From: Fimbriimonadaceae bacterium
GTDB lineage: Bacteria; Armatimonadota; UBA10988
Length of the DNA stretch: 64,000 nt
Direction of reading: 5' to 3'
NCBI GenBank assembly: GCA_020850355.1
Contig: JADZEX010000059.1
Coordinates: forward strand, 38,989 to 102,988
The notes beneath the pieces were generated by a model. That model was not told the origin of the DNA, did not search any database, and worked only from the letters and a program-made list of their open reading frames with translations. A program made the translations under genes and the position numbers. Shown piece by piece: positions 10,112 to 28,411 of this stretch. Numbering within the stretch: position 1 is the stretch's first letter; each line of letters opens with the position of its first letter.

Positions 10112-13100
10112 CTAGCGGATGGTGACCGTCCGCACGGCCCGCACCATCTCGCCCGCAGCGCTGCGCGCCAGCAACTGCACCTGGTAGGTCCCGCGCGGGA
10201 CCGGCCGGCCTTGCGCGTCGAGCCCGTCCCAGTTGAGCGCCACCACCCCACTGCCGGTGCGCGGCGCCGTCTCGACGATCACCCGACCCGCCAGGCTGGT
10301 CACGCGGAGCACCAGACTCGCCTCGCTGGAGACCGCCGCGCTGACCGCCAACCCCCGGCCGCGGCCGGGCTGCACGGACAGCGTGCCGATCTGCAGCGTG
10401 CTGCTGCCGCGCGGCACCACGGTCAGGTCAAAGAAGCGCTCGCCACTGCCCTGGAAGACGTAGGAGCTGCTGTTGTTGAGCAGCACCTGCTGCCCGGTGC
10501 TGAGGTCGAGCAGCCGCGCCCGGTAGCCATTGGGCAACTGCCGCGCCAGGAACGGCCAACTGAGGGTGACCGGCCCCTGCTGCGCCGCCGTGACGGCCAG
10601 CCGCCAGCGAGTCGCGGTGGTCACCGGCTGGCCTTGCCAGTCGGCGGCCGCGCGAGTCAGGTCGCTGGCGATGATCTCACAGCGCACCGGCCCGCTGCCC
10701 GACGGGGCCGCCGGCGGCGTGACGCTGCGCACGGCCTGCCGCAACGCCCCGACCACGGCCGTGCTGCTGCCCCCGTCGACGCTGGCCGTCAGCGCCAGGC
10801 CGAAGTTGGACGGCGAGACCGGCGCCGGCGCCTGCCGGGCCAGCCCGCTGTCGGGTCGGTAGACCACCCCGACACCGTCCCGCAGGGCCCTCCAGAAGTA
10901 GCCCTCGTAGACTTGCACCTGGGTCCGCATCCCGTCGGTCCCCGGCAGCACCGGATCGATCACCTGCTCGTAGTCGTGCCCGTTGTAGACCCAGCCGAAC
11001 GGGTCGATCAGCGCCCAGTTGTCGGGATCGGCGAGCGTGCCCTGCGAGACGCCGGCCAGGAAGACCTCGAAGTCGGCCAGCCGCCACTGCATGTTGCGCG
11101 ACTCGCGCGGGTTGCCCAACTGGTGGAAGCCCGCCGGCGAGGTCACCAGGCTGAACCCGTTGGCACCGCCGTCGTTGCCGGCCCGGGTGCCGGTCAGTTC
11201 GGCCACCCCGGCCGAGTTGGTGCGCAGGAAGAAGCCCTTGCCCGGCGCGATGTTGAACGCCGCGTTGGCGGCATCCGGCCGGAAGAACTCGTAGCGGGTC
11301 TGCCCCGCCACCAACCGCGCCACCTGCGGCGGGGTCGGCGTGACGTTGAAGTCGAGGATCGTCTGCCGGCTGTCAGCCGGGCTGATCGGGAAGCTGATCA
11401 GGTAGACCCCCGGCGTCGACAGCGACACGCTCATCACCTGCAGGAACTCGGCCGTGGCGGTGGCGGCGATCTGCTCCCCGTCCAGGGTGGCGCTGATGGC
11501 CACCGTGCCGGGGTTGTCCTTGGTCATCTGGAACCGCAGTTGGCCGGTCGAGTCGGTCGCCGCGGTCGGGTTGGTGATGTGCAGGCCCTCGGTCGGGGCG
11601 CCGAACACCTGCACGCGGCTGGCGGCGACCCCGGCGACCGGCTGGGCAGCGCTGTCGCGCACCGTCACGGTGACCGTGATCGGCGTCTGGCCATTGGCCG
11701 GAGCCGTCGGCCGCGAGAGCTGCAGCAGCGAGCTGCCGCCCTGGGCCTTGACGATGTAGTTGACGGTCACTTCGAGGCCCGGGCTGACCGTGAACTCGTG
11801 GACGCCTTCGGCTTCGAGCACCGGCGACCCCGAGCTGGCATCGGCGAACGACAACTGCGTGTCGACGTCGCAGTAGTCCTGGAACGAGCCGAAGAGGTCG
11901 ATCACCTGCACGTCGTTGCCCAGGTAGCGGCGCTTGACGGTGCTCACGCGGCTCCCGGAGTTGGTGCCGTTGAGGGTCGCCTTGACCCGCGCCTGGTGAT
12001 AGAAGTCGGCCACGATGGTGCGGTTCTGGGTGGTGATCGTCCCGGTCCGCGGGTTGGGCTGCCCATCGGCATCGGTGTCGGGTGCCAGCCAGCGCTGGTC
12101 GGTGCCCTGCGTCAGCGGCGCCGCCGGAATGCTGTACCCCGAGCCGGCATCGCAGAAGGCGGTGGCGGTCTGCGAGTTGGCGTTGACCGTCGCGCTCTGC
12201 CCGCCGGTGAGGATGCCGACCGGCACGAGGTTGGCGTCGTCGTAGGTCCCGCCGGCCTGTACCTGAACCTGGAAGGTCGCCCGCAACTGGTGGTAGTAGC
12301 TGGCGCTGAGGCTGGTCACGGTGGAGTTGACGGTGTAGGTCTGCTGCCCCTGCCGCCACCACCGCGCCGAGGTCGTCGAGCCGCTGCTGGTGTCGGGGAA
12401 GACCACGTCGCTGCCGTCGTCGCAGTAGATGGTCGCCGGGCTGCCGTCGTAGACGGCCTGCTGCCGGGTGATCCCGCGCAGGGTGTACTGCACCGCGGCG
12501 TAGTTCGAGCTGTCCAGCCGCCGGGCCCCGGTGACGGCCCCATTGGCGGTGTCGACGGTCACCTGCACCGGCAGACCGAGCAGCCGCTGCGCCTCCTGCA
12601 CCGCGGCGAAGGCGTTGACCTTGCCGTAGCCGTAGAGGTCGCTGTGCCCATTGCTGTCGTAGCCGCCGCCGGGCTGGTCGATCTGGTCGGCCGTCCGCTC
12701 CAACAGCGCCTGCACCTCGGTATAGGTCAAGGTCGGGTTGGCCGAAATGACCAGCGCGGTGACCCCCGAGGCCAGCGGGCAGGCCGAGGAGGTGCCGCCG
12801 AAGGTTGGCTCGTAGTTGCCGGCGTTGTAGCCCTGACCACCCATCCGGTCGGTGGTGGTGATCCCGGCCGTGCCAGCGATGATGTCGTTGGAGGGCGCCA
12901 CCAGGTCGAGCGCGGCGCCGTAGCTGCTGTAGGCCGAGCGGACCTCCTGGCTGTTGCTGGCACCAATCGCCATCACCCGCTGGTAGGTCTCCAGGCCGCG
13001 GCCGGCGATGTCGACGTTGTCGTTGCCCGAGGAGTACAGGAAGACACACCCGGCACCGAAGCGGCCGGTGTTGGTGCAGAGGTCGATCGCCTGGCGAATC

Positions 13101-14242
13101 GGGTCCGGCAGCGGCAGGTCGACGGTGTAACCCCAACTGTTGTTGAAGATGCTGACTCCGGCCTGGAGGCCAACGGTGTAGCCGGTGGCGACGTCATCGA
13201 AGGAGAAGCCGTTGTTGAAGTCCATCCGGATCGGGAAGATGCGGCAACCGGGCGCCGCCCCAGTGACGCCCAGGTTGTTGTCACCCGCGGCGGCGGCCAC
13301 GCCGCTGACCGCTGTACCATGCGCGTCGGCGGGATCCTTGTGCGAGCCGTCGTTGGTGCCGGTCGAAGTGTCATACCCCCGCATCAGCTTGTTGCCGACA
13401 TCGAGGTCCTCGTGGTTCGGATCGACGCCGTCGTCCATCACGCCGATCACCAAGAAGCCGCTGCCACGCTCCAGGTCCCAGGCCTCGGCGGCGTCCACGT
13501 CGGCGTCGGCGAGGGTGTTGGGGTAGGTGCCGTCACTGTTGAGGTGCCACTGGTCGGGCGCGTACAGGGGGTCGTTGGGCGTGTAGAACAACTGACCCAG
13601 CGGCGCTCGTCCGCGGGGCCGGGGCGGCGGAGCGTGACGCACCGCCCCACCCACCAGGTTCGGCGTCGCCATCCGGGCGTGCGCCACTTCGACCAACTGC
13701 CGGGCCACGGTCATCGGGTTGTGGGTCTCGGGATCGACCACCCGGACGAGATAGCCGGTCGGCGCATAGTCGCCCAGCGGCCGGACGAACTCGAGGCCGT
13801 AGTCGGCGGTCAGGGCCTGCCGCTCGGTGAGGCTGAGCGCGCGCCCAAAGTCCAGCAGGATTTCGGCGGTCAGGGCGATCGGCGCCGCCGGCGCGCCGAA
13901 CGACGGCAGCACGGCGATCACGCCCGAGACGGCTCGAACCTCTTGCGCCAGGGTGTCCAGCGCGGCCCGCGAGCGGCTCACCGCCGGGCGTACCAGCACC
14001 ATCTGGTGTTGCGGCAGCACGGCCAGGCGAGTGGCCGCATGGTTGACGCCCGCCTGCTGCAAGCCTTGCGGCAGGGCCGCCGTGGCGGCGGCCGAGCCGG
14101 TCAGGGCAACCACTGCGGCGTCGCAACGTGGCAGACTGACGATCTGCCCATTGGCGTAGAACTGCAGGTCCTGCGCCCCGGCTGCGCTGACTGCCAAAGC
14201 CACCCAGAAGAGCGGTGCCCGCCGTCCGATCCACGCGCGCAT
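10112..14242 (-). CDS. Secreted S8 subtilisin-like serine protease with Ig-like and FlgD-like C-terminal domains
   Basis: A 1376-aa exported protease. The signal peptide is at 1-23 (ending VSAAGA). The S8 catalytic triad is Asp270 (VMDDGVD), His308 (DAHGT) and Ser485 (GGTSSACP). After the protease there are repeated beta-rich stretches, including an invasin/Big-type segment (PANGQTPITVTVTVRDSAAQ). The end is a FlgD-Ig-like domain (WDGLDAQGRPVPRGTYQVQLLA), a module often found at the very C-terminus of large exported proteins of diderm bacteria and thought to help sorting or anchoring. The start ATG 14242 has GGGAGG upstream; the frame is open 16 codons further but without an RBS. It has its own promoter and a leader of about 143 nt. 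Substrates are unknown; probably cell-surface or extracellular. Confidence 0.9.
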   Translation of the reverse strand: MRAWIGRRAPLFWVALAVSAAGAQDLQFYANGQIVSLPRCDAAVVALTGSAAATAALPQGLQQAGVNHAATRLAVLPQHQMVLVRPAVSRSRAALDTLAQEVRAVSGVIAVLPSFGAPAAPIALTAEILLDFGRALSLTERQALTADYGLEFVRPLGDYAPTGYLVRVVDPETHNPMTVARQLVEVAHARMATPNLVGGAVRHAPPPRPRGRAPLGQLFYTPNDPLYAPDQWHLNSDGTYPNTLADADVDAAEAWDLERGSGFLVIGVMDDGVDPNHEDLDVGNKLMRGYDTSTGTNDGSHKDPADAHGTAVSGVAAAAGDNNLGVTGAAPGCRIFPIRMDFNNGFSFDDVATGYTVGLQAGVSIFNNSWGYTVDLPLPDPIRQAIDLCTNTGRFGAGCVFLYSSGNDNVDIAGRGLETYQRVMAIGASNSQEVRSAYSSYGAALDLVAPSNDIIAGTAGITTTDRMGGQGYNAGNYEPTFGGTSSACPLASGVTALVISANPTLTYTEVQALLERTADQIDQPGGGYDSNGHSDLYGYGKVNAFAAVQEAQRLLGLPVQVTVDTANGAVTGARRLDSSNYAAVQYTLRGITRQQAVYDGSPATIYCDDGSDVVFPDTSSGSTTSARWWRQGQQTYTVNSTVTSLSASYYHQLRATFQVQVQAGGTYDDANLVPVGILTGGQSATVNANSQTATAFCDAGSGYSIPAAPLTQGTDQRWLAPDTDADGQPNPRTGTITTQNRTIVADFYHQARVKATLNGTNSGSRVSTVKRRYLGNDVQVIDLFGSFQDYCDVDTQLSFADASSGSPVLEAEGVHEFTVSPGLEVTVNYIVKAQGGSSLLQLSRPTAPANGQTPITVTVTVRDSAAQPVAGVAASRVQVFGAPTEGLHITNPTAATDSTGQLRFQMTKDNPGTVAISATLDGEQIAATATAEFLQVMSVSLSTPGVYLISFPISPADSRQTILDFNVTPTPPQVARLVAGQTRYEFFRPDAANAAFNIAPGKGFFLRTNSAGVAELTGTRAGNDGGANGFSLVTSPAGFHQLGNPRESRNMQWRLADFEVFLAGVSQGTLADPDNWALIDPFGWVYNGHDYEQVIDPVLPGTDGMRTQVQVYEGYFWRALRDGVGVVYRPDSGLARQAPAPVSPSNFGLALTASVDGGSSTAVVGALRQAVRSVTPPAAPSGSGPVRCEIIASDLTRAAADWQGQPVTTATRWRLAVTAAQQGPVTLSWPFLARQLPNGYRARLLDLSTGQQVLLNNSSSYVFQGSGERFFDLTVVPRGSSTLQIGTLSVQPGRGRGLAVSAAVSSEASLVLRVTSLAGRVIVETAPRTGSGVVALNWDGLDAQGRPVPRGTYQVQLLARSAAGEMVRAVRTVTIR

Positions 14243-14333
14243 GTTCACCCTCCCGCTCGGCCCCTCGGCAGGGCCGGGCAAGGTATCCATCTCAGGGCGT
14301 GTTCGCTGCCGCGGCGCCGGTCCCTGCCGGTCT

Positions 14334-14423: not shown

Positions 14424-16577
14424 TCAGGCGCCGGGGCGGCTCGCTTCTTGGACAGGCGCGGAGCCCGGCGGTTGTGCCGGATCGTCAGCCGGCATCAGCC
14501 CGCGTATCGGCGCGATCCGGCCGGCGTCGTAGGCGGCCAGGAAGGCGTCCACGGCGGCCGGGTGCCACTGCGACCCGGCGCCCTCGCGCAACCGCCGCAG
14601 GGCCTCCTGGTCGGCCAGGCCGCGGCGGTAGGGCCGGTCGCTGGTCATCGCGTCGTAGGCGTCGGCCACCGCCAGCACCGTCGCCTGGGTCGGAATCTCG
14701 TCGCCCGCCTTGCGGTCCGGGTAGCCCTGGCCGTCGTACCGCTCGTGGTGCCAGCGAATCCCCGGCAGCACGGCGTGCAGCCGCTTGACTGGCGCGATGA
14801 TCCGCGCGCCATGCAGCGGATGCTGCTGCATCACGGCCCGCTCCTCGGCCGTCAGCGGCCCCGGCTTGCAGAGAATCGCCTCCGGAATGCCGATCTTGCC
14901 GACGTCGTGCATCAGCGCCGCGACCCGCAGCAGGTCGAGGTCGGCCGGCGCCAGCCGCAGCTCGCGAGCCGTCTCGAGAGCCAGCAAGGTCACCCGGTGG
15001 CTATGCCCGGCGGTGTACCGGTCTTTCGCGTCGACCGCCTTGGCGAGGGTCCCGACGGTGCTCAGGAAGAGGTCCTGCAGGTCACCAAACAGGCGCGTGT
15101 TGAGAATCGCCACAGCGGCGTGGTTGGCCAGGGCCGAGAGCAGGTCCAGGTCGCGGTCGCCAAACACCCCGGGGCCAGTCTTGTTGGCGATGTTGAGCAC
15201 CCCGATCACCCGGCCGTGGACCCGCAACGGGACACACAGCGCGTCGCGGACACCGCTCCGGGCTTCCTCCAGGTCGGCCGCGTCGACCAGCCGGAGCGGC
15301 TCCCCCGACAGCGCCACCAGCCCCGCGATGCCCTCGCCGAGTCGAACGCGGGTCGCTGCGACGACCTCCTCGCTGAGCCCCCGCGCGGTCTCGATGCGCA
15401 GCTCGGTGCGCTCTTCATCGAGCAGCATCAGCGACCCGCGCTCGGCCGCCATCAGGGCCATCGCCTGACCCAGAATCTCGTTCAGCACATCGCGGCTGTC
15501 GACGGTCACCAGCGCCCGGCTGACTTCGAACAGGGCGGTCAGCTCGCCGGTGCTGCGACTCAGGTCGCGGGCCTGCTCGTGCAGGCTATTGCGCAGCCAG
15601 GCCGTCTCCCAGGCCAGCCCGGCCTGCTGCCCAAACTCCCCGAGCGCCTCCCGCTCGGTGCGGTCGATGGCCAGGTCGGGCAGGCTGCTGAGCAGGGTCA
15701 GCCGGCCGATCAGGCGGTGCTCCTCACCGACCAGCGGGACCACCAGGTTGGTCCCGTCAAGGTCCAACGAGCGGGTGGTGATCACCGCTGGCGGTCCGGC
15801 CGCGCCGCCCAGCTCGTCGGGCTCCACCGCCTGCGGCAACCGCGCCGGCGGCCGGCCGCCGCGGCTCCGCGAGCCCCACGGTTCGAGGGTGTCCCCCGCC
15901 GCGTTGAGCAGCGCCAGGGTGACGCTCTGCACCGCCGGCAGCGCCTGCGCGGTGTCCAGCACCAGATCGGCCAGCGCCGTCAGCGGCAAGGGCCGCCGCA
16001 AGGCCCCCGCGATGGTGCTGGTGGCTCGCTCGTGGTGCAGCAGGCGGGCCATCCGGCGGTCGCGCTCCTGCCGTTCGGCCGCGTCCCGCGCCAGGGTCCC
16101 GACGACCAGCCCCCCGGCGACGATCGTCGCGGCCAGGCCGATCAGCTCGTAAGGCGCCGCGCGGCCCGGCGTCTGGACCGTCAGGAAGGTCGCCGCGACG
16201 AGGCAGGCGAGGGCCACCAGCAGGACCGTGTCCTCGCGCAGCAGCAGCCCTGCGTCAAGCACCGGCAGCACCAGCAGGTAACGCAGCGGGCTGTTGATGC
16301 CGGGGCCGTGCAACAGGATCAGGCAGGTCGCCAGGACGATGTCGCCGACCAGCCGCAGCCGGCGGGCCTGGTCGGTGGAGTGGGCGGTCAGCCCGGCCAG
16401 CAGGCTCAGCGTGACGTAGCCCAGCCCGACCCCCAGCAGGCCGTTGACAGCCGGCTCGGGCGCTGCCAGGGCGACGATCAGCAGCGCGGCCAGCAGGACT
16501 AGCGCCCGCGCCACCTGCCAGCCGGGCGCGCTGTAGGGCGAGGACCAGGTCACGGGCAGCCCGGCGGTAGCATCCAC
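14424..16577 (-). CDS. Membrane-anchored GAF and HD-GYP protein, predicted c-di-GMP phosphodiesterase
   Basis: 717 aa. Several hydrophobic segments occupy residues 22-165. They are followed by a weak GAF-like domain (about 190-330), a clear GAF domain (about 345-495) and a C-terminal HD-GYP domain. The HD pair is at 557-558 (ALMHDVGKIGIP) and the defining HHERYDGQGYP at 610-620, so the metal site and GYP motif look intact. HD-GYP proteins hydrolyse c-di-GMP to pGpG or GMP. The start is uncertain: the GTG at 16577 gives a 10-nt gap after the sigma-GGDEF stop, and a GTG at 16553 also fits. It is the last gene of the pil operon; the next gene has its own promoter. Its position makes it the likely eraser of the signal sensed by the upstream fusion protein. 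Confidence 0.88.
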   Translation of the reverse strand: MDATAGLPVTWSSPYSAPGWQVARALVLLAALLIVALAAPEPAVNGLLGVGLGYVTLSLLAGLTAHSTDQARRLRLVGDIVLATCLILLHGPGINSPLRYLLVLPVLDAGLLLREDTVLLVALACLVAATFLTVQTPGRAAPYELIGLAATIVAGGLVVGTLARDAAERQERDRRMARLLHHERATSTIAGALRRPLPLTALADLVLDTAQALPAVQSVTLALLNAAGDTLEPWGSRSRGGRPPARLPQAVEPDELGGAAGPPAVITTRSLDLDGTNLVVPLVGEEHRLIGRLTLLSSLPDLAIDRTEREALGEFGQQAGLAWETAWLRNSLHEQARDLSRSTGELTALFEVSRALVTVDSRDVLNEILGQAMALMAAERGSLMLLDEERTELRIETARGLSEEVVAATRVRLGEGIAGLVALSGEPLRLVDAADLEEARSGVRDALCVPLRVHGRVIGVLNIANKTGPGVFGDRDLDLLSALANHAAVAILNTRLFGDLQDLFLSTVGTLAKAVDAKDRYTAGHSHRVTLLALETARELRLAPADLDLLRVAALMHDVGKIGIPEAILCKPGPLTAEERAVMQQHPLHGARIIAPVKRLHAVLPGIRWHHERYDGQGYPDRKAGDEIPTQATVLAVADAYDAMTSDRPYRRGLADQEALRRLREGAGSQWHPAAVDAFLAAYDAGRIAPIRGLMPADDPAQPPGSAPVQEASRPGA

Positions 16578-16587: not shown

Positions 16588-17937
16588 CTAATCGTCCGGC
16601 GGCGTTTCGGGCCACACCACCAGCCCGTCGGCGCCGCCGCCCTCGAGCGCCTGCCGCAAGGCCACGTCGGCACCGTTGAGCAGTTCGTCGGGAGTGTTGC
16701 CACCGGCCGGCCAGAGGGCCATGCCGCAGGCCACCTGGAGCGCCTGCCCGGCGGCCTCGCGCAGCAGCGGCAAGGCCCGGAAGTGCTCCTGAATGCGGCG
16801 ACAGAGCACCGTCGCCTGGGCCCCGGTTTGCGGCAGCAGCAGCAGGAAGCGGCTGTCGTCGTAGCGCCCGACGCGGTCGATCCGGCGGGAGCATTCGACC
16901 AGCACGTCGGCCAGCAGGCAGAGCACGCGGTCGCCGTCGGGCTCGCCGTACTGCGTGACGTACCCGCCCAGGTGCTGCACCGCCAGCAGACAGACGCTCA
17001 GTTGGTGGCCGTACCGCCGGCTGCGGCTGAACTCCTCGTCGAGCCGTTCGAGCAGGTAGTGGCGGCTGAACAGCCCGGTCAGCTCGTCCTTGATGGTCTC
17101 CTCTTCGACCCGCCGCACGTAATGCTGCAGTTGGCCCTCGATGCTGCGGAGCTGGCGGCGCATCTCCTTGCGCTCTTCGACCAGCAGTTGGTCCTTCAAC
17201 TCCTTCAGCGCCCGCCGCAGGATGTGCGAGACGTGGCTGATGCTGTAGCCCAGTTTGCGGGCGATCTCGGTCTTCGAGAGGTCGTTGAAGAAGAAGTCGT
17301 AGACCACCTGGCGCTCGACCGAGCGCAGCCGGTCCATCGCCTCTTCGAGCGCCAGCCGGTCGACGATCGGCACCTCGCCGCCTTCTTCGGCCAGCGCCCG
17401 CACCTTGTCGCGGTCGGCCGGCGCCAGGCCGCTCTCCTGCTCCTCGCCGGCGGGCTGCTCCAGCGAGCTGACGCGGAACACGTCGCGCGCCCGCACCGCC
17501 TCGGCGATCTGGGCGTCGGGCAGGCTCAGCTCCTCGGCGATCTCCTCGACCGTCGGCTCGCGGCCGAGGCTTTGGTGCAGCCGGTTGATGGCCTTGTTGA
17601 TCTTCTGGTTCAGATCGTGCAGCCAGCCCGGCTCGCGGATCAGCTTGCCCTTGTCCCGCAGATAGTGCTGAATCGCGCCCTGCACGGCGTGTGAGGCGTA
17701 GGTCGTGAACTTCACGCCGCGGCGCGGGTCGAACATCTCGACGGCGTTGATCAGCCCGATGTACCCCTCCTGGGCGATGTCGTCGACCGGCTCGCCGGTG
17801 AAGCGGTAGCGCGCCGCGAGGTGCTCGACGAGGTCCATGCAGGAGAGCACGATCTCATCGCGCACCGCCGTTTCACGGGTGCGGGCGTATTCCAGTAGCA
17901 GTGGCGCCAGGGGGTCGTCTGAGCGTGAAGGGATCAC
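16588..17937 (-). CDS. Sigma-70 family (group 3-like) sigma factor fused to a degenerate GGDEF domain
   Basis: 449 aa in two halves. Residues about 30-250 are an alternative sigma factor of the SigB/SigF/FliA kind. Region 2 (VDDIAQEGYIGLINAVEMFD, 51-70), region 3 (about 105-160, with LGREPTVEEIAEEL) and region 4 (about 195-250, HTH KTEIARKLGYSISHVSHILR) are all present. A charged helical linker (252-282) leads to a GGDEF-fold domain that starts with DELTGLFSRHYLLERL. The catalytic GGDEF is replaced by DDSRF (360-364), so cyclase activity is unlikely. The allosteric I-site RxxD is kept as RRID (351-354), exactly 5 residues (RVGRY) before that pentad, as in c-di-GMP-binding cyclases. I infer a c-di-GMP-sensing sigma factor. 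The gene is 27 nt after pilQ and 10 nt before the HD-GYP gene. Start GTG 17937. Confidence 0.9.
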   Translation of the reverse strand: MIPSRSDDPLAPLLLEYARTRETAVRDEIVLSCMDLVEHLAARYRFTGEPVDDIAQEGYIGLINAVEMFDPRRGVKFTTYASHAVQGAIQHYLRDKGKLIREPGWLHDLNQKINKAINRLHQSLGREPTVEEIAEELSLPDAQIAEAVRARDVFRVSSLEQPAGEEQESGLAPADRDKVRALAEEGGEVPIVDRLALEEAMDRLRSVERQVVYDFFFNDLSKTEIARKLGYSISHVSHILRRALKELKDQLLVEERKEMRRQLRSIEGQLQHYVRRVEEETIKDELTGLFSRHYLLERLDEEFSRSRRYGHQLSVCLLAVQHLGGYVTQYGEPDGDRVLCLLADVLVECSRRIDRVGRYDDSRFLLLLPQTGAQATVLCRRIQEHFRALPLLREAAGQALQVACGMALWPAGGNTPDELLNGADVALRQALEGGGADGLVVWPETPPDD

Positions 17938-17964: not shown

Positions 17965-20481
17965 CTAACGCACCGCCGCGGCGGTTGGTGCGACCGGCGC
18001 GGGCGGCGGCACCAGGCGCACCTGCAAGAGCACCAGCAGCTCGCGGGCCGGCTGCTCGGCCGGTCGGGCCGACGCCGGGTCGGCGAGCAGCCCGCTGAGC
18101 AGCAGCACCTGGCCGTCGGGCACGCGGGCGCTGGTCTCGGCCTCGCGCGTGGCCACCGCGCCGCCGGCCGCGGGCTGGCTGTACTCGGGTCGCAGCCGAC
18201 AGAGCACCGTGCCGTCGCCCGGCACCTGACAGTGCAGTTCGAGCGCCACGCCGATCCGTTCGATCTCGCGACTCGCCTGCGGCTGACCGGCGACCAGCAG
18301 CAGACTCGGCACGCCCTGGCGCTGACCCACCAGGAAGCGCAGCGAGCCGCCATCGAAGCAGCGCAGGACCGGCCGGGAGAGCACCCGACTGGGCTCGTCC
18401 CCGGCGATCAGCAGCGCCGCCTGGGCCAGGTCGAGGTCGGCCCGGAGCAGGCTCTGCGGGCCGGCCGGGCCGCCGGTGCGGTCAAGCCCGAGGCGCTGCG
18501 CGACCCACGGCGTGACCTCCGCAAAGAGCGCCTGCACCTCGACCTCGGGCGGCGCCAGGTCGATCTGCGCCAACAGCGTCAGGGCCCGCTCGACCGCCGC
18601 CGGGGCGCCACTGAGGATCAGCCGGGGAGTCGTCCCGAGCCGTTCGGCGGGCGGCTCGGCCGGCCCGTCGGCGCTCTTCGGCGCGCCCTCGGGCGCGGCC
18701 GGGCCGAGCTGCGGGGCGACCCGCTCGCCGGCACCGGGGGTGCGTTGCGACTGGTAGTCGACCAGCTTCAGTTCGGGCACGGCCCCGTGGAGCACCCGCA
18801 GCAAGTCGGCCGGGCGGGCGTAGCGGACGGCGTAGACCGCGGTCTGTGCCGGCTCGTCGGCCTGGGTCAGCGCGGCCAGCACGGCCTTCACCTGGTCGGC
18901 GCGGCCGCTGATTGTGAAGACCCCCTCGCTGACGGTGGCGCTGACGGCACTGCCGCCGGCGGCGATCAGCCGCTCGGCCGCGGCCACACTGAGCGTGCCC
19001 GGACGCCAGGTGCGGGAGATGCTGACAGCCTCCCCGGCGGCCGACTTCTCCTCCCGCTCCCGGCGCCGCGTGGCGGCATCCTGCAGTTGTTTCACCAACT
19101 CCCGCAGCGAGCGGACCTTGTCCTCCTTGCCACGCAGGTAGCAGAGTGTGCCCTCGGCCTCGGTGTAGACGATGTCGAGGGTGACCCCGGCGCGGGTCGC
19201 CAGGTCGGTGATCTTCTCGGGCGGCACCAGCGGCACCCAGATCGCCTCTTCGACGTCCTTCAGCGGCTCGCGGTCCAGCTCTTCGAGCTTCCGTCGACCG
19301 CGGTAGACATCGCTCCGCGTGCCGCGCAGGGTGAGGCTGCCGGCGTCCTGGTCGGTGACCACCGTGAGCTGCGGGTAGAACGCCCGCAGGGCCTCCTGCG
19401 CTTCGGGCAGGCTGAGGTTCTTCAGAAACACCGTCGCCTCGTCCTGCTGCGCCGAGGGCGGCGTGATCACGTGCCCTTCGCCACTCGGCGGCAGCGCGGC
19501 GATCCAGCGCCGGGCGCGCCCGACGTCTTTGAGGGCCCCGCTGACCGGCAGCGGGCCATCCTCGGGAATGCTCTCGAGCACGCGCCGCAGCCGCAGGTCT
19601 GGGAACTGGGCATTGACGTAACGCCAGAGGTCGGCGACCTGCCAGTTCGGCGGCAGGGGCAGATCCTCGTCGACCCGCCGCTCGCCCAGGTCGGACTCGG
19701 CGCCGACCAGGTAGATGTTGCCGGGCAGCCGGGTCCAGACCAGCTTCCAGGCCTCCCACAAGGCGTCCAGCGCCTCGGTCAGGGTGACCTGCTTCAGCTT
19801 CAGCGAATAGCTGCCGGCGACTCCCGGCTGCAGCATGATGTTGGCGCCGGTCTGCTCAACCAGGGCCCCGATGATCACCCGAATGTCGGTATCCACGAAC
19901 TCCGCGGTGATCTTCGCCTCGTGCGCCGGCCCGGCTGGTTTGTCGGGCCCGGCCGGCTCGGCGGGGGGCGGCTCGACCTCAATCACCACCTGCTTGCGCG
20001 ACGGCAGGGCATAGGCCCGGCAGCGGGCCGGGGTGTTGAGCCGCACCCGCAGCACCGTGTCGACACCGTCACGCCCGATGGAAACCTCGGCCACGGCGTC
20101 GCGGGCGACCCGGATGGTGCGGGCCAGCTTCGGCGCGGGGGTCGTCGCCGGGATCGTCACGGCGAAGGTCGCCTGACCCTCGAAAGCGGTCTCGACGCTG
20201 CGCTTCGGCCAGCTCAAAGTGGCGGTGAGGCGCAGGAAGTCGGCCCCTTCGGGCTGCCCGACGGTGACCTGCAGCAGTTGCGCGTCGCGCTCCGGGAAGG
20301 CCGCTGGTGGCGGCGCGTCGCCGGCCGGGGCCGCCTCGCCGGCCGCCGCCTCGTCTGCGCTGGCCGGCGGGTCGGCGTCGGCCGGCGGTGCCAGCGGCGG
20401 CATCGCCTGGTCGTCTTGCGCCCGCAGCGGCGCAGCGCCGCCTGCCAGCAGCAACAGCAGTAGCCAGCGTGTCCAGTTCAT
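17965..20481 (-). CDS. pilQ: Type IV pilus secretin PilQ
   Basis: An 838-aa outer-membrane secretin, the pore through which the type IV pilus leaves the cell. The signal peptide ends near Ala21 (APLRAQ). An AMIN-like domain follows (about 50-170; binds peptidoglycan), then an STN-like domain (about 195-260; AEFVDTDIRVIIGALVEQTG). N-domain repeats come next, and the C-terminal secretin core has IERIGVALELHCQV, the TREAETSARVPDGQ block and the LLLSGLL strand. The fold and size fit PilQ. It is fifth in the operon and starts inside the end of pilP (ATGA, 20478-20481). Confidence 0.9.
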   Translation of the reverse strand: MNWTRWLLLLLLAGGAAPLRAQDDQAMPPLAPPADADPPASADEAAAGEAAPAGDAPPPAAFPERDAQLLQVTVGQPEGADFLRLTATLSWPKRSVETAFEGQATFAVTIPATTPAPKLARTIRVARDAVAEVSIGRDGVDTVLRVRLNTPARCRAYALPSRKQVVIEVEPPPAEPAGPDKPAGPAHEAKITAEFVDTDIRVIIGALVEQTGANIMLQPGVAGSYSLKLKQVTLTEALDALWEAWKLVWTRLPGNIYLVGAESDLGERRVDEDLPLPPNWQVADLWRYVNAQFPDLRLRRVLESIPEDGPLPVSGALKDVGRARRWIAALPPSGEGHVITPPSAQQDEATVFLKNLSLPEAQEALRAFYPQLTVVTDQDAGSLTLRGTRSDVYRGRRKLEELDREPLKDVEEAIWVPLVPPEKITDLATRAGVTLDIVYTEAEGTLCYLRGKEDKVRSLRELVKQLQDAATRRREREEKSAAGEAVSISRTWRPGTLSVAAAERLIAAGGSAVSATVSEGVFTISGRADQVKAVLAALTQADEPAQTAVYAVRYARPADLLRVLHGAVPELKLVDYQSQRTPGAGERVAPQLGPAAPEGAPKSADGPAEPPAERLGTTPRLILSGAPAAVERALTLLAQIDLAPPEVEVQALFAEVTPWVAQRLGLDRTGGPAGPQSLLRADLDLAQAALLIAGDEPSRVLSRPVLRCFDGGSLRFLVGQRQGVPSLLLVAGQPQASREIERIGVALELHCQVPGDGTVLCRLRPEYSQPAAGGAVATREAETSARVPDGQVLLLSGLLADPASARPAEQPARELLVLLQVRLVPPPAPVAPTAAAVR

Positions 20482-21398
20482 GGGGCAGTATCCAAGCCGG
20501 GAGGTGGATCAAACGGCAGCGCGCCCGGGGCCGCCGGACGGGTCGGGCCAGCGCGCCGGCCCGGCGGCCGGTTGGGTCGCGGCGCGGTGGCGGCGGGGCC
20601 GTCGTTTTCGGAATCGGCCGCGGGCGGCTGGTTGGTCCCGGCGGCCGGGGCCGTGCTGCGGCGCAGGGGCACCCGCCAGCGGTGGCCGTCGCGCAGCAGC
20701 AGCACCGCCTCGTCGAGCACCGCCTCCAGGCGGTAGTCGCCGATCAGTTGGCCGACCCGCACGGTGCGGTCACCCTCGCGAGTCCGGAACAGCGCCGCGG
20801 AGCGCGCCGGGTCCTGGTTGCGGATCACCCCGACCGGTTGCAGCGCCGCCTCGTCGAGCGCCGGCGGATCGCCAAACGCGGGCGGATCGGCCGGGTCGAA
20901 GGCCCGCAGCTCGGCGACGCTCGGGCCGGCCGGCCGGCGGGCTGGCTCCGCCGCTGGCCGGCTGCCCTCCCCACCACGTCGCCGCGGCCGCGGCCGGTCG
21001 GTGGTGCTGGGCGCGGGCGGGGCAGGTTCGTCGGGAGCCGGCGGGGCCGGTTCGTCCGGCGCTGGCGGACCCGGCGCCTCACCGCCGGGCGCCACCGGGG
21101 CCGGGATGATCGGTCCGGGCGCCGCCCCGTCGGAGCTGGCCGGCGGCTCGTCGCCGGCTGCCTCGGGAGTCGCGCCGCCGGGCGGCAGGAAAGGATCCCG
21201 GTCGGGCTGCGGACTGGTCTCGTCGAAACCGCCGTCGGTCGGCCCGCTGGCGATGGCGGCGGGCGGGCTCACCAGCTTCGCCACCGGCCGCTGCAGCCGA
21301 CTCGCCGCGACCCACAGGCCGGCCCACAGCAGCAGCAGCAAGAGGCCGCCGAGGACCGCCTGCCGCAACCGGGTCGCCGGACTCGGCGTGCTGCTCAT
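20478..21398 (-). CDS. pilP: PilP-like pilus assembly protein, proline-rich
   Basis: 306 aa. An N-terminal transmembrane anchor (about 14-32) precedes a very long Pro/Ala/Glu-rich spacer (about 60-170) with repeated DEPAPPAP units. A small beta domain follows (about 186-245: QPVGVIRNQDP through VLLLRDGHRWRVPL) that resembles the PilP/GspC beta domain linking PilO to the secretin. There is no lipobox, unlike classic PilP lipoproteins, so the protein is anchored by its helix. Gene order (between pilO and pilQ, both overlaps 4 nt) supports the assignment more than sequence similarity does. A second Pro-rich tail ends the protein. Confidence 0.72.
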   Translation of the reverse strand: MSSTPSPATRLRQAVLGGLLLLLLWAGLWVAASRLQRPVAKLVSPPAAIASGPTDGGFDETSPQPDRDPFLPPGGATPEAAGDEPPASSDGAAPGPIIPAPVAPGGEAPGPPAPDEPAPPAPDEPAPPAPSTTDRPRPRRRGGEGSRPAAEPARRPAGPSVAELRAFDPADPPAFGDPPALDEAALQPVGVIRNQDPARSAALFRTREGDRTVRVGQLIGDYRLEAVLDEAVLLLRDGHRWRVPLRRSTAPAAGTNQPPAADSENDGPAATAPRPNRPPGRRAGPTRPAAPGALPFDPPPGLDTAP

Positions 21399-22450
21399 CG
21401 GCCGCCTCCTGCCGCCGGCGGCCGGCCCGTCGAACGGCGCGCGCGCCGTTCGGCGTCCTGCCAGGGCCGCCCCATCCGCGGTGGCGCCTGTCCCGCCGAC
21501 CGCGGCAAGCGCTCGTCAGCCGGCGGCGCGCCCGCGGTCGGTCCCGGCGGCTCAGGCGCGGGTTCGTCTCCCGGCGGCTGCGGCGCCGGCTCATCGGCCG
21601 GCGGCTGAGGCGCGGGTTCGTCTCCCGGCGGCTCGGGCGCGGGTTCGTCTCCCGGCGGCTGCGGCGCAGGCTCGTCGGCCGGCGGCTCAGGCGTGGGTTC
21701 GGCACTCGGTGGGGCGGGGGCGGCGACGGGCGGACTGGCGGGTGCGGGTGGGACCACCGCCCGGAAGCCGGGGCTGCTGGGACGGCGGCGTTCGTACTGC
21801 CAGATCCGCGCCGTCAGCACCGAAGGCGGCGCGGGGGCAGTCGGGTCGGGAATGCCGGGCGCCTCGTAGGCCACCAGCCCCAGCTCGGCGAGCACCTCGC
21901 CCGTCGCGCTGCCGGCGACCGGGGTGATCGTCAGGCGCCGCACGGCCAGCAGCTTCGGGGCGCTCTGGAAGGCTTCCAGCAACTGGCCGAGTCCGGCGTA
22001 ACGGCCCTTCAGCGTGACCGTCACCAGCCGCCGCCCCGGCGCGCTGGCCTCCCCGCGGCTGGCGGGCGGCGTGCCCCCGCTGGCCAGCAGCCGCGCCGTC
22101 TCGCCCGCGTCGGGGACCACGCCGACCAGCGCCAGCTCGGCGCCGCTCGCCAGGTCGGCGAGCTGGGTCACCAGCGTCGGCACGTAGAGCCGCGCCGAGG
22201 TGGCCACCTCCAAGCCGGCCAGGTCGCTGCGCAGTTGCGCCGACCGCCGCCGCGCCGCGGGCAACTCGCGGACCAGGGCCCGCTCGGCGGCCAGCTCGCG
22301 AAGCTGGTAGCGCAGCTCGGGGATCACCTGCTGGTACTGCCGCCACGGCCGCGCCGCGGCGCCCAGCATCAGGGTGCCCCAGACGACCCACCCGGCGACA
22401 TAGCAGAGCAGCGTGGCGGTGGGACTCAGCCGGTCCAGCCAACGCTTCAT
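21395..22450 (-). CDS. pilO: PilO-like pilus assembly protein with proline-rich repeat tail
   Basis: 351 aa. A transmembrane helix (about 13-33) is followed by a coiled-coil-prone segment (YQLRELAAERALVRELPAAR) and a ferredoxin-like PilO domain (LVTVTLKGRYAGLGQLLEAF, PKLLAVRRLTITPV). The last ~120 residues are an unusual Pro-rich tail with five tandem 9-residue units. In known systems PilO pairs with PilN and PilP in the alignment complex between inner-membrane motor and secretin. The ATG at 22450 overlaps the pilN stop (ATGA); the frame extends upstream only as arginine-rich shadow of pilN. Confidence 0.8.
   Translation of the reverse strand: MKRWLDRLSPTATLLCYVAGWVVWGTLMLGAAARPWRQYQQVIPELRYQLRELAAERALVRELPAARRRSAQLRSDLAGLEVATSARLYVPTLVTQLADLASGAELALVGVVPDAGETARLLASGGTPPASRGEASAPGRRLVTVTLKGRYAGLGQLLEAFQSAPKLLAVRRLTITPVAGSATGEVLAELGLVAYEAPGIPDPTAPAPPSVLTARIWQYERRRPSSPGFRAVVPPAPASPPVAAPAPPSAEPTPEPPADEPAPQPPGDEPAPEPPGDEPAPQPPADEPAPQPPGDEPAPEPPGPTAGAPPADERLPRSAGQAPPRMGRPWQDAERRARRSTGRPPAAGGGR
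21542..21676 (-). repeat. Five tandem 27-nt repeats encoding DEPAPxPPx in PilO
   Basis: Five consecutive 27-nt units encode DEPAPQPPG, DEPAPEPPG and DEPAPQPPA variants. The copies differ at silent and Glu/Gln positions but keep strict length, so copy number could change by slippage without breaking the frame. Such Pro-rich arms usually form extended spacers across the periplasm. Confidence 0.85.
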
Positions 22451-23037
22451 CGCGGGTCTCCCGCGAAGTCGCGCAGCGGCCGCCGGACCAGGCCGGTCAC
22501 GGTGAACTCGAGCGGCCCGGCCCCGCTGGCGGCGTCGGCCGGGCGGCTGCGCTGCAGCACCGCGACCCCGCACCAGGGCGACTGATTCAGCCGCTGGACC
22601 AGCTCGCCAATCGCCTGCTGACGCTCCGCGCGGCCTTCCAAGCGGAGCACCTGCCGCCCGTCGTCGCCGACGGCCTCGACCTCCAGCCGGGTCAGCCAGA
22701 GCCCCTCGGGCAGCCGGTCGCGCAGCTCGTGGAGCAGGTCCCGCCATTGCGCGTTGTTGCCATGCACGCCCATCGCCCGCCGCCGCGGTTCGGCGAGGTC
22801 GCGCAACTCGGTCTGCAGGCGGCGGGTCTCGGCCGCCTGGTCGGCGATCCGCCCGCGGTCCAGGCGGGCCTGCAGCAGCCGCCAGGCCCCGACCGAGGCG
22901 GCCCGCTCCAGCAGCAGCGGCACGAGGGTCAGCAGCAGCAACACAACCACATTGGCGCGGCGCAGCCCGGCGGCCAGCCGCCAGGCCCGGCGGCGGGCCG
23001 CGTACCGTTCGGCGATGAAGTTGGCCTGGCTTGGCAT
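22447..23037 (-). CDS. pilN: PilN-like fimbrial assembly protein
   Basis: 196 aa. A short cytoplasmic N-terminus (MPSQANFIAERY, comparable to the conserved PilN segment that binds PilM) is followed by a transmembrane helix (about 29-48), a coiled-coil stretch and a small periplasmic domain (EGLWLTRLEVEAVGDDGRQVLRLEGRAE). This is the PilN/Fimbrial-assembly family layout. The PilM-binding motif usually reads INLLP; here it is NFIAE, which is divergent. The start ATG overlaps the pilM stop by one base (TGATG). Confidence 0.82.
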   Translation of the reverse strand: MPSQANFIAERYAARRRAWRLAAGLRRANVVVLLLLTLVPLLLERAASVGAWRLLQARLDRGRIADQAAETRRLQTELRDLAEPRRRAMGVHGNNAQWRDLLHELRDRLPEGLWLTRLEVEAVGDDGRQVLRLEGRAERQQAIGELVQRLNQSPWCGVAVLQRSRPADAASGAGPLEFTVTGLVRRPLRDFAGDPR

Positions 23038-24110
23038 CAGCTTGCCACCACCGCTTCTCGCAGGGCCAGCCCCAGGCAGTTGACGAACGCCGGCCCCAAC
23101 GCCGTGACCGCCGGCGGCAGCGCCGCGCGGCTCTCGGCGGCCACCTCAGCAAACGGCTCCAAGCGCTCCACCGGCCAACCCAGGCGCGCGGCCAGCACCT
23201 CCGGCAGGCCGGCCAACTGGGCCCCGCCGCCGTGCAGCAGAACCTGCGCTGGCGGGCCCTCGGCCGCGCCGCGGAGACCCTCGACCAGCGCCTGCAACCA
23301 CTCTTCCAGGGCCGCGGCGCACGGCTCGTCGAAGGCCGCCTCGGCCTCGGTCAGACAGCCCAACTGCTGTTCCTTGTACGCCAGCGCCTCCGCCGTGGTG
23401 CACTCGGCCGCCTGCGCCAGGCGCGCCGTCAGCGCCGCGCCGCCGGTCGGCAGCACGGTCGCCCGCTGCACCTCACCGGCAACCACCCACCTGGCGGTGC
23501 AGTGGCCCTCACCACAGTCGACCAGCAGCAGCTCCTGCTGTTGCCAGGACTCGTCCTCGGCGCTGGCCAGCAGGAACAGCGGCGCGTGGGGCAGGGCCTC
23601 GATCACAATCGGGTCGAGGCGGGCGGCGAGCAGCGCGCCGGTGAGGTCGTCGACCAGTTGCTGCGGCGCCGCGGTGACCAGCAGGTCGAGCGCCCCATCG
23701 AGCGCATTCGGCGCGGGCGCGAGGCGCCAGTCGACGGCGTGGGCGCCACTCCAGGGGGCCGGTTCACCAACCACCGCGGCGGCCGCGGCGGCGGGCAGCG
23801 CGGACGCTGGGAGCGCCGGCAGGTGGACGCTGCCGAGGGCGAGGAAGGGCGCCCCAATCGCACTGACGGCGCGCGCGTCGGGGAGGCCCAGCTCGTGCAG
23901 CAACTGCCGCAGACAGTCGCCCAGGGCGTCGCGCGCGGCGAGCCGGCCACGGGGATCGAACAGCCCGGCGGGAGTCGCGGTGCGGGCGAGCCCGACCACC
24001 GTCGGGGCGGCGGTGCGCGGGTCGAGCCAACTGACTTTGATGCTATGTCGCCCGACGTCCACGCCGACAAGCGGCAGGCCGCCGAGGTGGCCGCGGCGCG
24101 CACGGGCCAT
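23037..24110 (-). CDS. pilM: PilM-like actin-fold pilus assembly protein
   Basis: 357 aa, cytoplasmic. It is an actin/FtsA-like ATPase fold: phosphate-1 motif VGVDVGRHSIKVSW near the N-terminus, LLVDCGEGHCTARW as phosphate-2, and VLLHGGGAQLAGL as the adenosine motif. PilM docks on the PilN N-terminus at the inner face of the membrane. The start ATG 24110 is chosen over an upstream TTG at 24149 because the operon promoter places transcription start at about 24148, and GGGGAGG lies ~10 nt before the ATG. It is the first gene of the pilMNOPQ / sigma-GGDEF / HD-GYP operon. Confidence 0.85.
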   Translation of the reverse strand: MARARRGHLGGLPLVGVDVGRHSIKVSWLDPRTAAPTVVGLARTATPAGLFDPRGRLAARDALGDCLRQLLHELGLPDARAVSAIGAPFLALGSVHLPALPASALPAAAAAAVVGEPAPWSGAHAVDWRLAPAPNALDGALDLLVTAAPQQLVDDLTGALLAARLDPIVIEALPHAPLFLLASAEDESWQQQELLLVDCGEGHCTARWVVAGEVQRATVLPTGGAALTARLAQAAECTTAEALAYKEQQLGCLTEAEAAFDEPCAAALEEWLQALVEGLRGAAEGPPAQVLLHGGGAQLAGLPEVLAARLGWPVERLEPFAEVAAESRAALPPAVTALGPAFVNCLGLALREAVVAS

Positions 24111-24154
24111 GGCTCTCGCCGCCTCCCCGTCACGAGTGTGGTATACCAAAGGCC

Positions 24155-27010: not shown

Positions 27011-28333
27011 TCAGTCGTCGCCTGCGGAGTCGTCGCCGACGGGTCCGCTGCCGAGGCCGTCGCGCTGGAACTTCAGCCGGTGGTAGGCCACCGTCCGCCG
27101 CGAGATCTGCGTGCCGTAATCGCTTTCCAGGATCCGGCGCAACTCGTTGTCGGTCAGTTGGGGATGCCGCTCGACCAGCCGGCGGACCACGGCGGTCTTC
27201 TTCTGGAAGAGGAACTTCAGCTCGATCATGCCGTACGGCGAGTCGATGAACTTGTCGCGCAGCAGCCGACAGATGGTCGCCTCGTCCTCCCCCAGCTCGC
27301 GCGCCATGTCGGCCTGCGCCACCGGCTTCAGAGCGTACACATCGCCGGTCAGGAAGTAGCGGTACTGGTAGCTGCAGATCGCCATCACCAGCCGGCAGAG
27401 CAGGGTCTTACGCTGGTTGATCCACTGCAGCTCGAGCAGCAGTTGCTCGGCCTCGCCGCTGTTGTCGAGCGACGCGATGCGACTGATGGCGTTCGGGCTG
27501 GTGCGGTAGCGCTCGGCGTAGACACTGTCGTCGTTGAACTGAATCGCGACGGCCCGGGCGCTGTCGGTGAGCAGCACGTTGGCGACCGCTTCGAGACTTT
27601 CGTTGGCCTGCCCGGTCGGTCGGGTCGAGGCCTCGGAGGTGCCGCCACCGGTCACGAAGGTGTCGACGATGTGCAGCCGGCCGAGGGCATCGAGGATCTC
27701 GTCAACCTCGGCCAGCGGCGCGCGGTAGCGCTCAGCGAGCACCGCCGCGACCTCTTCGCCCTGCATGAAGTCCTGCACGAAGGCCTGCTCGCTGAGGCCG
27801 TAGCTCTCGACGAACTCGCGCATCAGCACGATGTTGTCGGTCACGTCGACATCGGCCCGCGAGGGGATCAGCTCGACGTAGTCGGGCTCGTCGGTGGAGT
27901 AGCTGCCATACCCGTCGGTGCCGTAATGGTCGCTGGTGACGCGCTGGTAGTACTCGACCATCTTGCGCAGCCGGTCGGGCGGCGCGCCGTACTTCTCGGC
28001 CAGGCGCGGGATCCGCTCCATCGCCGCGCGGTCCAGAAAGTCGCGCTCCCAGTCGTCGTGGCGAGTCACCCGGAACTGCCGCAGGAACTGCATCAACTGC
28101 ACGTCCATGTACTCTTCGTACTTGTCGCGCGGCACCCGCCCACGGCTCTTGACGCGCTTCACCGCCCCCGACTCGACCAGCGTCCGGAAAGCCCGGGAGT
28201 CCTCAACCTGGTGGACATACGCCCGGAACTCGTCCTCTGGACGGTCGAGCAGGTCAATCAACTGGCGCGGCGGCCGCCGAATCGTCAGTTCGGCCTTCGG
28301 CTGCACCGTGACCCGGACCTCCGGACGACGCAT
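27011..28333 (-). CDS. Divergent sigma-54 (RpoN)-like factor
   Basis: 440 aa. The C-terminal half follows the RpoN order. A core-binding/HTH block at 309-375 reads TLLCRLVMAICSYQYRYF, then KPVAQADMARELGEDEATICRLLRDKFIDSPYGMIELKFLF. An RpoN-box-like SRRTVAYHRL follows at 411-420 (consensus ARRTVAKYRE). The N-terminus has only a vague region-I-like stretch (RRPPRQLIDLLDRPEDEFRAYV) without the Gln-rich character of true sigma-54, and the middle is novel. It may be a sigma-54 paralogue with changed promoter or activator needs. No bEBP activator is in the window. The start at 28333 has GGAGGAG 6 nt upstream and fits the promoter; an earlier frame start would fall in the -35. Confidence 0.72.
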   Translation of the reverse strand: MRRPEVRVTVQPKAELTIRRPPRQLIDLLDRPEDEFRAYVHQVEDSRAFRTLVESGAVKRVKSRGRVPRDKYEEYMDVQLMQFLRQFRVTRHDDWERDFLDRAAMERIPRLAEKYGAPPDRLRKMVEYYQRVTSDHYGTDGYGSYSTDEPDYVELIPSRADVDVTDNIVLMREFVESYGLSEQAFVQDFMQGEEVAAVLAERYRAPLAEVDEILDALGRLHIVDTFVTGGGTSEASTRPTGQANESLEAVANVLLTDSARAVAIQFNDDSVYAERYRTSPNAISRIASLDNSGEAEQLLLELQWINQRKTLLCRLVMAICSYQYRYFLTGDVYALKPVAQADMARELGEDEATICRLLRDKFIDSPYGMIELKFLFQKKTAVVRRLVERHPQLTDNELRRILESDYGTQISRRTVAYHRLKFQRDGLGSGPVGDDSAGDD

Positions 28334-28383
28334 CAGCAGCTCCTCCAAGGGGGTTGGCAGTACCGTTGCAAGCGGTCGCTGGC

Positions 28384-28411
28384 ATGATAGCACCGGGCGA
28401 CGGGCTGTCAA
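28384..28411 (-). promoter_or_regulatory. Sigma-70 promoter for the sigma-54-like gene
   Basis: Minus strand TTGACA (28406-28411), a 16-nt spacer, TATCAT (28384-28389). Predicted start is about 28377, giving a 44-nt leader. Confidence 0.68.

What the first reader, a model, noticed from the sequence alone, without database searches (positions are those of the whole stretch)
16588..17937. A sigma factor with a built-in c-di-GMP sensor: sigma-70 fused to a degenerate GGDEF domain that keeps its I-site
Seen: the cyclase pentad reads DDSRF (360-364), but RRID (351-354) lies exactly 5 residues before it, as in I-sites of PleD-type cyclases, and the preceding RY is also kept. Seen: sigma regions 2, 3 and 4 are complete. 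Known: in Streptomyces a separate anti-sigma, RsiG, ties WhiG to c-di-GMP, so a link between group 3 sigma factors and c-di-GMP exists but needs a second protein there. Inference: here one polypeptide does both jobs, with the former cyclase domain acting as the receptor and changing sigma activity when c-di-GMP is bound.
Basis: partly seen in the sequence, partly recalled or inferred. Interest (0 to 1): 0.95.

Follow-up and report, generated by a model that had tools for sequence, protein, structure and literature searches.

The report
Sigma factor carrying built-in c-di-GMP sensor
This gene encodes a protein that starts RNA synthesis at chosen genes (a sigma factor) fused to a former c-di-GMP-making domain that has lost its catalytic site but kept, in more than 200 aligned relatives, the residues that grip c-di-GMP in related enzymes, so it is predicted to switch genes, likely pilus genes, directly in response to that signal.

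Summary
Confirmed and strengthened. The 449-aa ORF (17937-16588, minus strand) is a SigB/F-like sigma factor (regions 2-4) joined to a C-terminal GGDEF domain. The cyclase site is gone, but the full PleD-type I-site (R305, R351, D354, R381 here) is present in 237 of 237 aligned homologues, GG[DE]EF in 0 of 237. In an overlapping genus-spread panel 92 of 97 rows keep all four. In 32 canonical GGDEFs the catalytic residues are invariant but only 24 keep all four. By match span at least 180 of 291 genomes of the phylum (named relatives: Armatimonadota) carry the fusion; among 36 genomes without a canonical-strength GGDEF only one was seen. PilC lies just upstream on the same strand in 66 of 93 loci; in the window the neighbours are pilus genes and an HD-GYP gene. 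Both AlphaFold models run one helix from sigma4 into the GGDEF stalk. Against: a few family members lack the GGDEF, and RxxD alone is also invariant in active cyclases. c-di-GMP binding, sign of regulation and targets are inferred. My ten paper searches listed no description.

The parts
16588..17937 (-). sigma-GGDEF fusion gene, 449 aa, GTG start
17647..17844 (-). sigma region 2 (residues 32-97)
   Evidence: Pfam PF04542
17425..17610 (-). sigma region 3 (residues 110-171)
   Evidence: Pfam PF04539
17194..17340 (-). sigma region 4 (residues 200-248)
   Evidence: Pfam PF04545
17098..17241 (-). continuous predicted helix (residues 233-280) from the last sigma4 helix into the GGDEF stalk
   Evidence: AlphaFold2 model, (pLDDT 71-97 in its 10-residue blocks); same helix in a 36%-identical homologue (232-277)
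16636..17091 (-). degenerate GGDEF domain (residues 283-434)
17023..17025 (-). I-site residue R305 (PleD R313, given by the partner subunit in PleD)
16876..16887 (-). I-site RRID, residues 351-354 (PleD R359, D362)
16846..16860 (-). degenerate cyclase pentad DDSRF, residues 360-364
16795..16797 (-). I-site residue R381 (PleD R390)
17965..20481 (-). secretin (pilQ-like) gene immediately upstream; 27-base gap to the sigma-GGDEF gene
   Evidence: Pfam Secretin and Secretin_N; gap
20478..24149 (-). pilM (23037-24149), pilN (22447-23037), unassigned gene in the pilO position (21395-22450, no Pfam hit) and pilP-like gene (20478-21398, T2SSC below cut-off)
14424..16577 (-). GAF/HD-GYP gene downstream (one candidate start GTG 16577; the longest ORF reaches 16703); motifs HDVGK and HHERYDGQGYP present
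   Evidence: Pfam HD_5, GAF; candidate starts; motifs

Best explanation
The protein is a complete SigB/F-like sigma factor whose last helix is predicted to run directly into a catalytically dead GGDEF domain, and that domain likely works as an on-board c-di-GMP receptor that turns the sigma factor's activity up or down. Shown by sequence: the fusion, the loss of the cyclase site, and the complete, conserved I-site. Predicted: the GGDEF fold and one unbroken helix from the last (DNA-reading) helix of sigma4 into the GGDEF stalk. Inferred: two molecules pair through the stalk; a c-di-GMP dimer is gripped by R351/D354/R381 of one GGDEF and R305 of the other, as in product-inhibited PleD. That crosslink would fix the stalk and hold sigma4 (and perhaps sigma2) away from core RNA polymerase, so high c-di-GMP would keep the sigma factor off. 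I favour inhibition over activation by only about 55:45; the confidence given is for the receptor role, not for the sign. The target genes are inferred to include type IV pilus genes, beside which the gene usually lies; the HD-GYP protein encoded next to it in the window would lower c-di-GMP and release the sigma factor.
For: I-site: 237 of 237 aligned homologues RRDR, 0 of 237 GG[DE]EF, 0 of 237 with D327+K332+N335+acidic 370. Genus-spread panel of 97 rows (partly the same proteins): R305 96, R351 97, D354 96 (one gap), R381 94; 92 rows keep all four; no GG[DE]EF. The I-site columns rank 1, 2, 3 and 6 (tied with 5) of 165 GGDEF columns by entropy, although the domain as a whole (mean 2.61 bits) is far more variable than sigma2 (1.18) or sigma4 (1.27). 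Control: of 35 GGDEF loci, 32 have a canonical pentad; these keep D327, K332, N335 and D344 in 32 of 32 but all four I-site residues in only 24 of 32. Structure. Predicted c-di-GMP makers are present: 5 domains with GGEEF and intact catalytic residues in the same genome; 7 HD_5 (HD-GYP-type) domains. Co-occurrence: of 36 genomes without a GGDEF at E <= 1e-38 only one (G057, 64% complete) showed the fusion at E <= 1e-40, against at least 179 of 255 with one. Pilus linkage: PilC-like ORF with midpoint within 2 kb upstream, same strand, in 66 of 93 loci (T2SSF confirmed by Pfam on the two tested). Literature precedent: PopA and CdgI bind c-di-GMP with a degenerate A-site and an intact I-site (PMC12564702 and PMC5635695, passages); RmdB's GGDEF domain binds sigma-WhiG (PMC13232838, abstract); OrbS has a C-terminal iron sensor that blocks core binding (PMC9023288, abstract).
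Against: No binding, dimerisation or transcription data. RxxD itself is also invariant in active cyclases of the phylum (32 of 32), so part of its conservation could be general to the fold. R381 is replaced in 3 and R305 in 1 of 97 panel rows. AlphaFold pTM is 0.50 and 0.45, so the placing of the domains is not determined, and stalk confidence falls to 67-71 near residue 275. Stalk length is 35-37 residues in 105 of 117 rows of A1 but runs from 22 to 37 among the eight commonest lengths of the panel, where another heptad phase scores higher, so coiled-coil pairing is not secure. Some members of the family lack the domain: P0071 and P0089 (56-58% identical) end after sigma4 and nest among the fusions in a tree, and L194 (G063) does so too. 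The pilus link is by neighbourhood only; 27 of 93 loci lack the adjacent PilC; a SigB-type promoter search in the window found none.
Confidence: 0.7

Rival explanations
1. The domain is a c-di-GMP receptor as above (this case shares the 0.7), but binding activates the sigma factor, for example by releasing an auto-inhibited form, giving negative feedback with the neighbouring HD-GYP enzyme.
For: Same I-site evidence; nothing in the sequence fixes the sign.
Against: Two precedents act the other way: c-di-GMP arms RsiG to hold WhiG (PMC8325347, passages) and the OrbS on-board sensor inhibits core binding (PMC9023288, abstract).
Confidence: 0.32
2. The domain is only a dimerisation or docking module for another GGDEF protein or a pilus protein, and the I-site residues are kept for folding or for the protein contact.
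For: RxxD is also invariant in active GGDEFs; a GGDEF domain can bind a sigma factor directly (RmdB-WhiG, PMC13232838 abstract).
Against: Degenerate GGDEFs of Campylobacter species without active cyclases also have degenerate I-sites (PMC9239204 passage), so the fold does not need them; here R305 and R381 are kept too, more completely than in active cyclases.
Confidence: 0.15
3. The pocket binds a different nucleotide (for example (p)ppGpp, c-di-AMP or GTP).
For: PDB entries 9g85 and 9g86 hold PleD with c-di-GMP and (p)ppGpp (titles); a RelA/SpoT-like gene lies in the window (29758-32322).
Against: The conserved set is the PleD c-di-GMP I-site (PMC7288161 and PMC12943098 passages); most GTP-site residues are lost.
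Confidence: 0.08
4. The protein is still a diguanylate cyclase, as some database names have it.
For: Names such as 'diguanylate cyclase' on P0003 and P0148.
Against: No GG[DE]EF in 237 homologues; D327, K332, N335 and E370 are not kept.
Confidence: 0.02

Closest known systems
RsiG-WhiG c-di-GMP switch (Streptomyces, Rubrobacter)
   Same: A sigma factor of the FliA/WhiG kind placed under c-di-GMP control.
   Different: There a separate anti-sigma coiled coil carries E(X)3S(X)2R(X)3Q(X)3D motifs (PMC8325347 passages); here the receptor is in the sigma polypeptide and is a GGDEF I-site; that motif is absent from all 238 alignment rows scanned.
ECF41 and OrbS: sigma factors with a C-terminal regulatory part
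   Same: Sigma factor regulated by its own C-terminal part (PMC3426412 abstract; PMC9023288 abstract).
   Different: Those are ECF sigmas with other C-terminal parts (a fused regulatory domain in ECF41; an iron-sensing cysteine motif in OrbS); here a SigB/F-like sigma with region 3 and a GGDEF domain.
PopA (Caulobacter) and CdgI (E. coli): dead GGDEF with live I-site
   Same: Degenerate A-site with intact I-site, binding c-di-GMP (PMC12564702 and PMC5635695 passages).
   Different: PopA is a response regulator that localises and directs protein degradation, CdgI has unknown function; neither is fused to a sigma factor.
PleD and WspR (active, product-inhibited cyclases)
   Same: Same GGDEF fold; PleD has the same four I-site residues.
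   Different: Catalytically active; the I-site is for feedback inhibition.

Membership tests
SigB/SigF/SigG-type sigma-70 factors | Sigma regions 2, 3 and 4 above Pfam cut-offs | tested here: met
SigB/SigF/SigG-type sigma-70 factors | Score above the curated cut-off of TIGR02980 (SigBFG) | tested here: not met
   187.6 bits against 234.35: best-matching subfamily, but outside its curated bounds; so called SigB/F-like, not a SigB/F/G member
Diguanylate cyclase | GG[DE]EF and metal/transition-state residues (PleD D327, K332, N335, E370) | tested here: not met
   A319, G324, V327, S362 and DDSRF here; 0 of 237 homologues
I-site c-di-GMP effector with degenerate GGDEF (PopA/CdgI kind) | Dead A-site with RxxD plus R390 and R313 equivalents | tested here: met
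I-site c-di-GMP effector with degenerate GGDEF (PopA/CdgI kind) | Measured c-di-GMP binding | not testable with these tools
   needs a binding assay
RsiG-type anti-sigma / c-di-GMP switch | E(X)3S(X)2R(X)3[QH](X)3D motif in the protein | tested here: not met
   0 of 238 rows
Sigma factor with fused C-terminal regulator (ECF41/OrbS kind) | C-terminal extension that controls sigma activity | tested here: inconclusive
   extension present and conserved; its effect on activity not measured

The most novel reading that the evidence does not exclude
A phylum-wide class of one-component sigma factors: the promoter-reading subunit of RNA polymerase is itself the c-di-GMP receptor, built by fusing a SigB/F-like sigma to a cyclase that lost its active site and kept its feedback pocket, and wired into the type IV pilus gene clusters of Armatimonadota with no anti-sigma between signal and polymerase.
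Probability: 0.62. Interest if true: 0.92.

Novelty: new variant of a known kind. Interest (0 to 1): 0.85.

Why it matters
If true, c-di-GMP can act on RNA polymerase with no intermediary: the second messenger binds the sigma subunit itself. That would add a further way (beside transcription factors and RsiG-type anti-sigmas) of linking c-di-GMP to transcription, suggest how a large, little-studied phylum ties pilus genes to the signal, and give a single-polypeptide system in which the effect of c-di-GMP on a sigma factor can be tested directly.

Tried and rejected
Still an active cyclase: rejected, catalytic residues lost. RsiG-like motif within the protein: none in 238 rows. Domain loss in orthologues of genomes without cyclases: I first took the sigma-only hits in G221, G063, G015 and G220 for this. 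In a FastTree tree of the sigma part (33 of the 97 panel rows used) those of G221, G015, G220 and the second one of G063 fall with the own genome's SigB-like paralogue (L005), so they are other sigmas; the first one of G063 (L194) falls inside the fusion clade and is a sigma-only member, but that assembly is 63% complete. So I use only the absence of the fusion, not domain loss. SigB-type promoter GTTT-N13-18-GGGTA (consensus recalled) in the window: 0 matches, 0.15 expected, so no regulon evidence. Conserved neighbours: the window's own pilus neighbours are not general; matches to its pilM/N/O/P/Q lie upstream on the same strand in 6 of 93 loci, several of them weak, and same-strand HD-GYP matches downstream in 4 of 93. 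Coiled-coil heptad: supported in A1 (0.53 against 0.30 hydrophobic) but weak in the panel (0.42 against 0.34, another phase higher). A scan of genome contigs gave only 3 loci. I did not search other phyla, so restriction to Armatimonadota is not shown; hits whose shown name gives a taxon were Armatimonadota or Fimbriimonadaceae, except one named only 'bacterium'.

Rows left out before counts: of 120 proteins listed, alignment A1 leaves out P0002 (the window's own copy), P0024 (GGDEF frame lost, by my reading), P0071 and P0089 (sigma only). A4 uses all 120 listed plus the query. The panel (96 loci) was taken from the 150 listed, best-scoring places, so it leans to the better matches. Own genome: 8 GGDEF matches, 7 compared; the partial one, L048, dropped out. 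Control: 35 loci, 3 without a canonical pentad (L169 GGEEL, L046, L047) set aside. Neighbourhood: 93 loci, one per genus, the window not counted; 5 hold under 1.2 kb upstream. Fusion count: 149 of 150 listed places extend past residue 370 (G214 stops at 286), of the 52 other genomes, 31 do, 2 (G023, G151) end at 320 and 333, and 19 match the sigma part only, so 202 at E <= 1e-40 overstates the fusion and I quote 180. The 36 genomes without GGDEF at E <= 1e-38 are 20 listed and 16 that I inferred by subtracting handles; only 13 of the 36 were also looked at with a laxer cut-off.

Full report
Observation. The ORF at 17937-16588 on the minus strand encodes 449 aa. Pfam places sigma regions 2, 3 and 4 and a GGDEF domain in one protein. 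The closest NCBIfam model is SigB/SigF/SigG, below its cut-off.

Family. A protein search returned 396 relatives at E <= 1e-3; of the 120 listed, all but three (P0024, P0071, P0089) bear the sigma and GGDEF domains by precomputed Pfam. A second search from a distant member (L110) returned 1600 at E <= 1e-3, and the 120 listed bear both; in both searches only the roughly 8000 candidates sharing most words were scored. Source names vary between 'diguanylate cyclase', 'sigma-70 family', 'sigma-B factor' and 'FliA'; none of the names shown mentions both functions. Where a taxon is shown it is Armatimonadota (including Fimbriimonadaceae), apart from one 'bacterium'. Among 291 genomes of the phylum, 202 match at E <= 1e-40. 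By match span past residue 370, 149 of the 150 places listed there and 31 of the other 52 genomes carry the fusion: at least 180. The window's own genome has one clear copy.

I-site against active site. Alignment with PleD (letters matched to PDB chains) gives R305=R313, R351=R359, D354=D362 and R381=R390, the four I-site residues as listed in PMC7288161 and PMC12943098 (passages read). In A1 (117 rows) and A4 (121 rows), 237 distinct ids in all, every row has all four; none has GG[DE]EF; none has the D327/K332/N335/acidic-370 set. The pentad takes 96 different forms in A1 and 54 in A4. A separately fetched panel of 96 loci plus the query (94 genera; some of the same proteins) gives 92 of 97 with all four; the exceptions are one row with a gap (L014, where the frame is lost), three with R381 replaced and one with R305 replaced. 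By entropy the four columns rank 1, 2, 3 and 6 (tied with 5) of 165. Two members of a divergent lineage (G002, G001: L250, L252) matched only over the sigma part, but their C-termini, read by eye, still show the equivalents of R305 and an RxxD (RAVD, RGVD), L250 also the R381 equivalent, with the pentad region unrecognisable.

Control and its limit. Of 35 GGDEF loci from the own genome and relatives, 32 have a canonical pentad. In these the catalytic residues are invariant, R359 and D362 too (32 of 32), R390 29, R313 27, all four 24. So RxxD alone is weak evidence; the strong point is that the whole I-site is held at least as tightly in a domain that no longer has a catalytic constraint. That degenerate GGDEFs can lose the I-site is reported for Campylobacter species without active cyclases (PMC9239204 passage).

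Results against. Some family members have no GGDEF domain: P0071 and P0089 and L194 of G063 nest among the fusions in a tree of the sigma part. In one search, 19 of 52 genomes matched by the sigma part only; some of these are other sigmas, some (L250, L252) have a very divergent C-terminus, and the rest were not resolved. Three panel rows lack R381.

Neighbourhood. In the window the order on the minus strand is pilM, pilN, an unassigned gene in the pilO position, a pilP-like gene, the secretin, sigma-GGDEF (27-base gap) and a GAF/HD-GYP gene (10 bases after, if it starts at 16577). The own genome's PilC-like (T2SSF) gene nearest to it lies on the same contig about 20 kb downstream, outside the window. 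Elsewhere in the phylum a PilC-like ORF is just upstream on the same strand (midpoints within 2 kb) in 66 of 93 loci (63 of 88 with at least 1.2 kb held); 73 of 93 have some pilus-assembly match in the held flank. Two PilC-like and three PilB/T-like ORFs were checked with Pfam: T2SSF in both, T2SSE in all three, and two of the three carry MshEN, a domain I recall as c-di-GMP-binding in MshE. A regulatory link to pili is therefore likely but inferred from position.

Signal present. The own genome has five GGEEF domains with intact catalytic residues, no EAL match, seven HD_5 domains and one PilZ. In the phylum, 255 of 291 genomes have a GGDEF at E <= 1e-38. Matches to the query at 1e-40 occur in 199 of these and in 3 of the 36 others (Fisher p 2.6e-16, not corrected for kinship). 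Of those 3, G221 and G063 match the sigma part only and G057, a 64%-complete assembly, has the fusion.

Mechanism. I commit to a receptor role with c-di-GMP crosslinking two GGDEF domains and holding sigma4 away from polymerase. Shown: sequence facts. Predicted: fold and helix. Inferred: binding, pairing, sign, targets. Precedents: PopA and CdgI for I-site effectors, RmdB for a GGDEF domain touching WhiG, OrbS for an on-board inhibitor, ECF41 for a fused regulator.

Literature. Ten searches of the held open-access library: none of the titles or abstract beginnings listed describes a sigma-GGDEF fusion. Of six exact phrases only 'sigma factor fused to' occurs, in two papers whose titles concern other matters (not opened). 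The library lacks most subscription papers, and the lists were capped. Papers were seen as search listings, abstracts or passages only, as marked.

Noticed in passing
L149:2382-3338 + (own genome C19 about 205816-206289): A second degenerate GGDEF in the same genome: receiver domain plus GGDEF with pentad STSGF and all four I-site residues (PopA-like layout), between a histidine kinase gene and a sigma-54 activator gene.
   Followed up: partly
L064:8741-10570 - and L050:8779-10515 -: PilB-like motor ATPases upstream of sigma-GGDEF carry an MshEN domain, so the pilus motor may also respond to c-di-GMP.
   Followed up: partly
proteins P0071 and P0089: Relatives (56-58% identical) that stop after sigma4 and nest among the fusions: natural sigma-only versions, useful as controls.
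   Followed up: partly
L250:1324-2793 + and L252:2-1222 -: Sigma factors of a divergent lineage with a C-terminus far more degenerate than the window's, in which an RxxD and the R305 equivalent can still be read by eye.
   Followed up: partly
residues D284, E302, R298, P369, P410 of the fusion: Other near-invariant GGDEF positions in the family; E302 and R298 lie on the helix that bears R305 and may belong to the ligand or dimer site.
   Followed up: no
window 10112-14290 -: Large predicted subtilase with Big_1 and FlgD_ig domains directly downstream of the HD-GYP gene.
   Followed up: no
window 27011-28411 - and 29758-32322 -: A protein with a sigma-54 DNA-binding domain and a RelA/SpoT-like gene lie a few kilobases upstream of the pilus cluster.
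   Followed up: no
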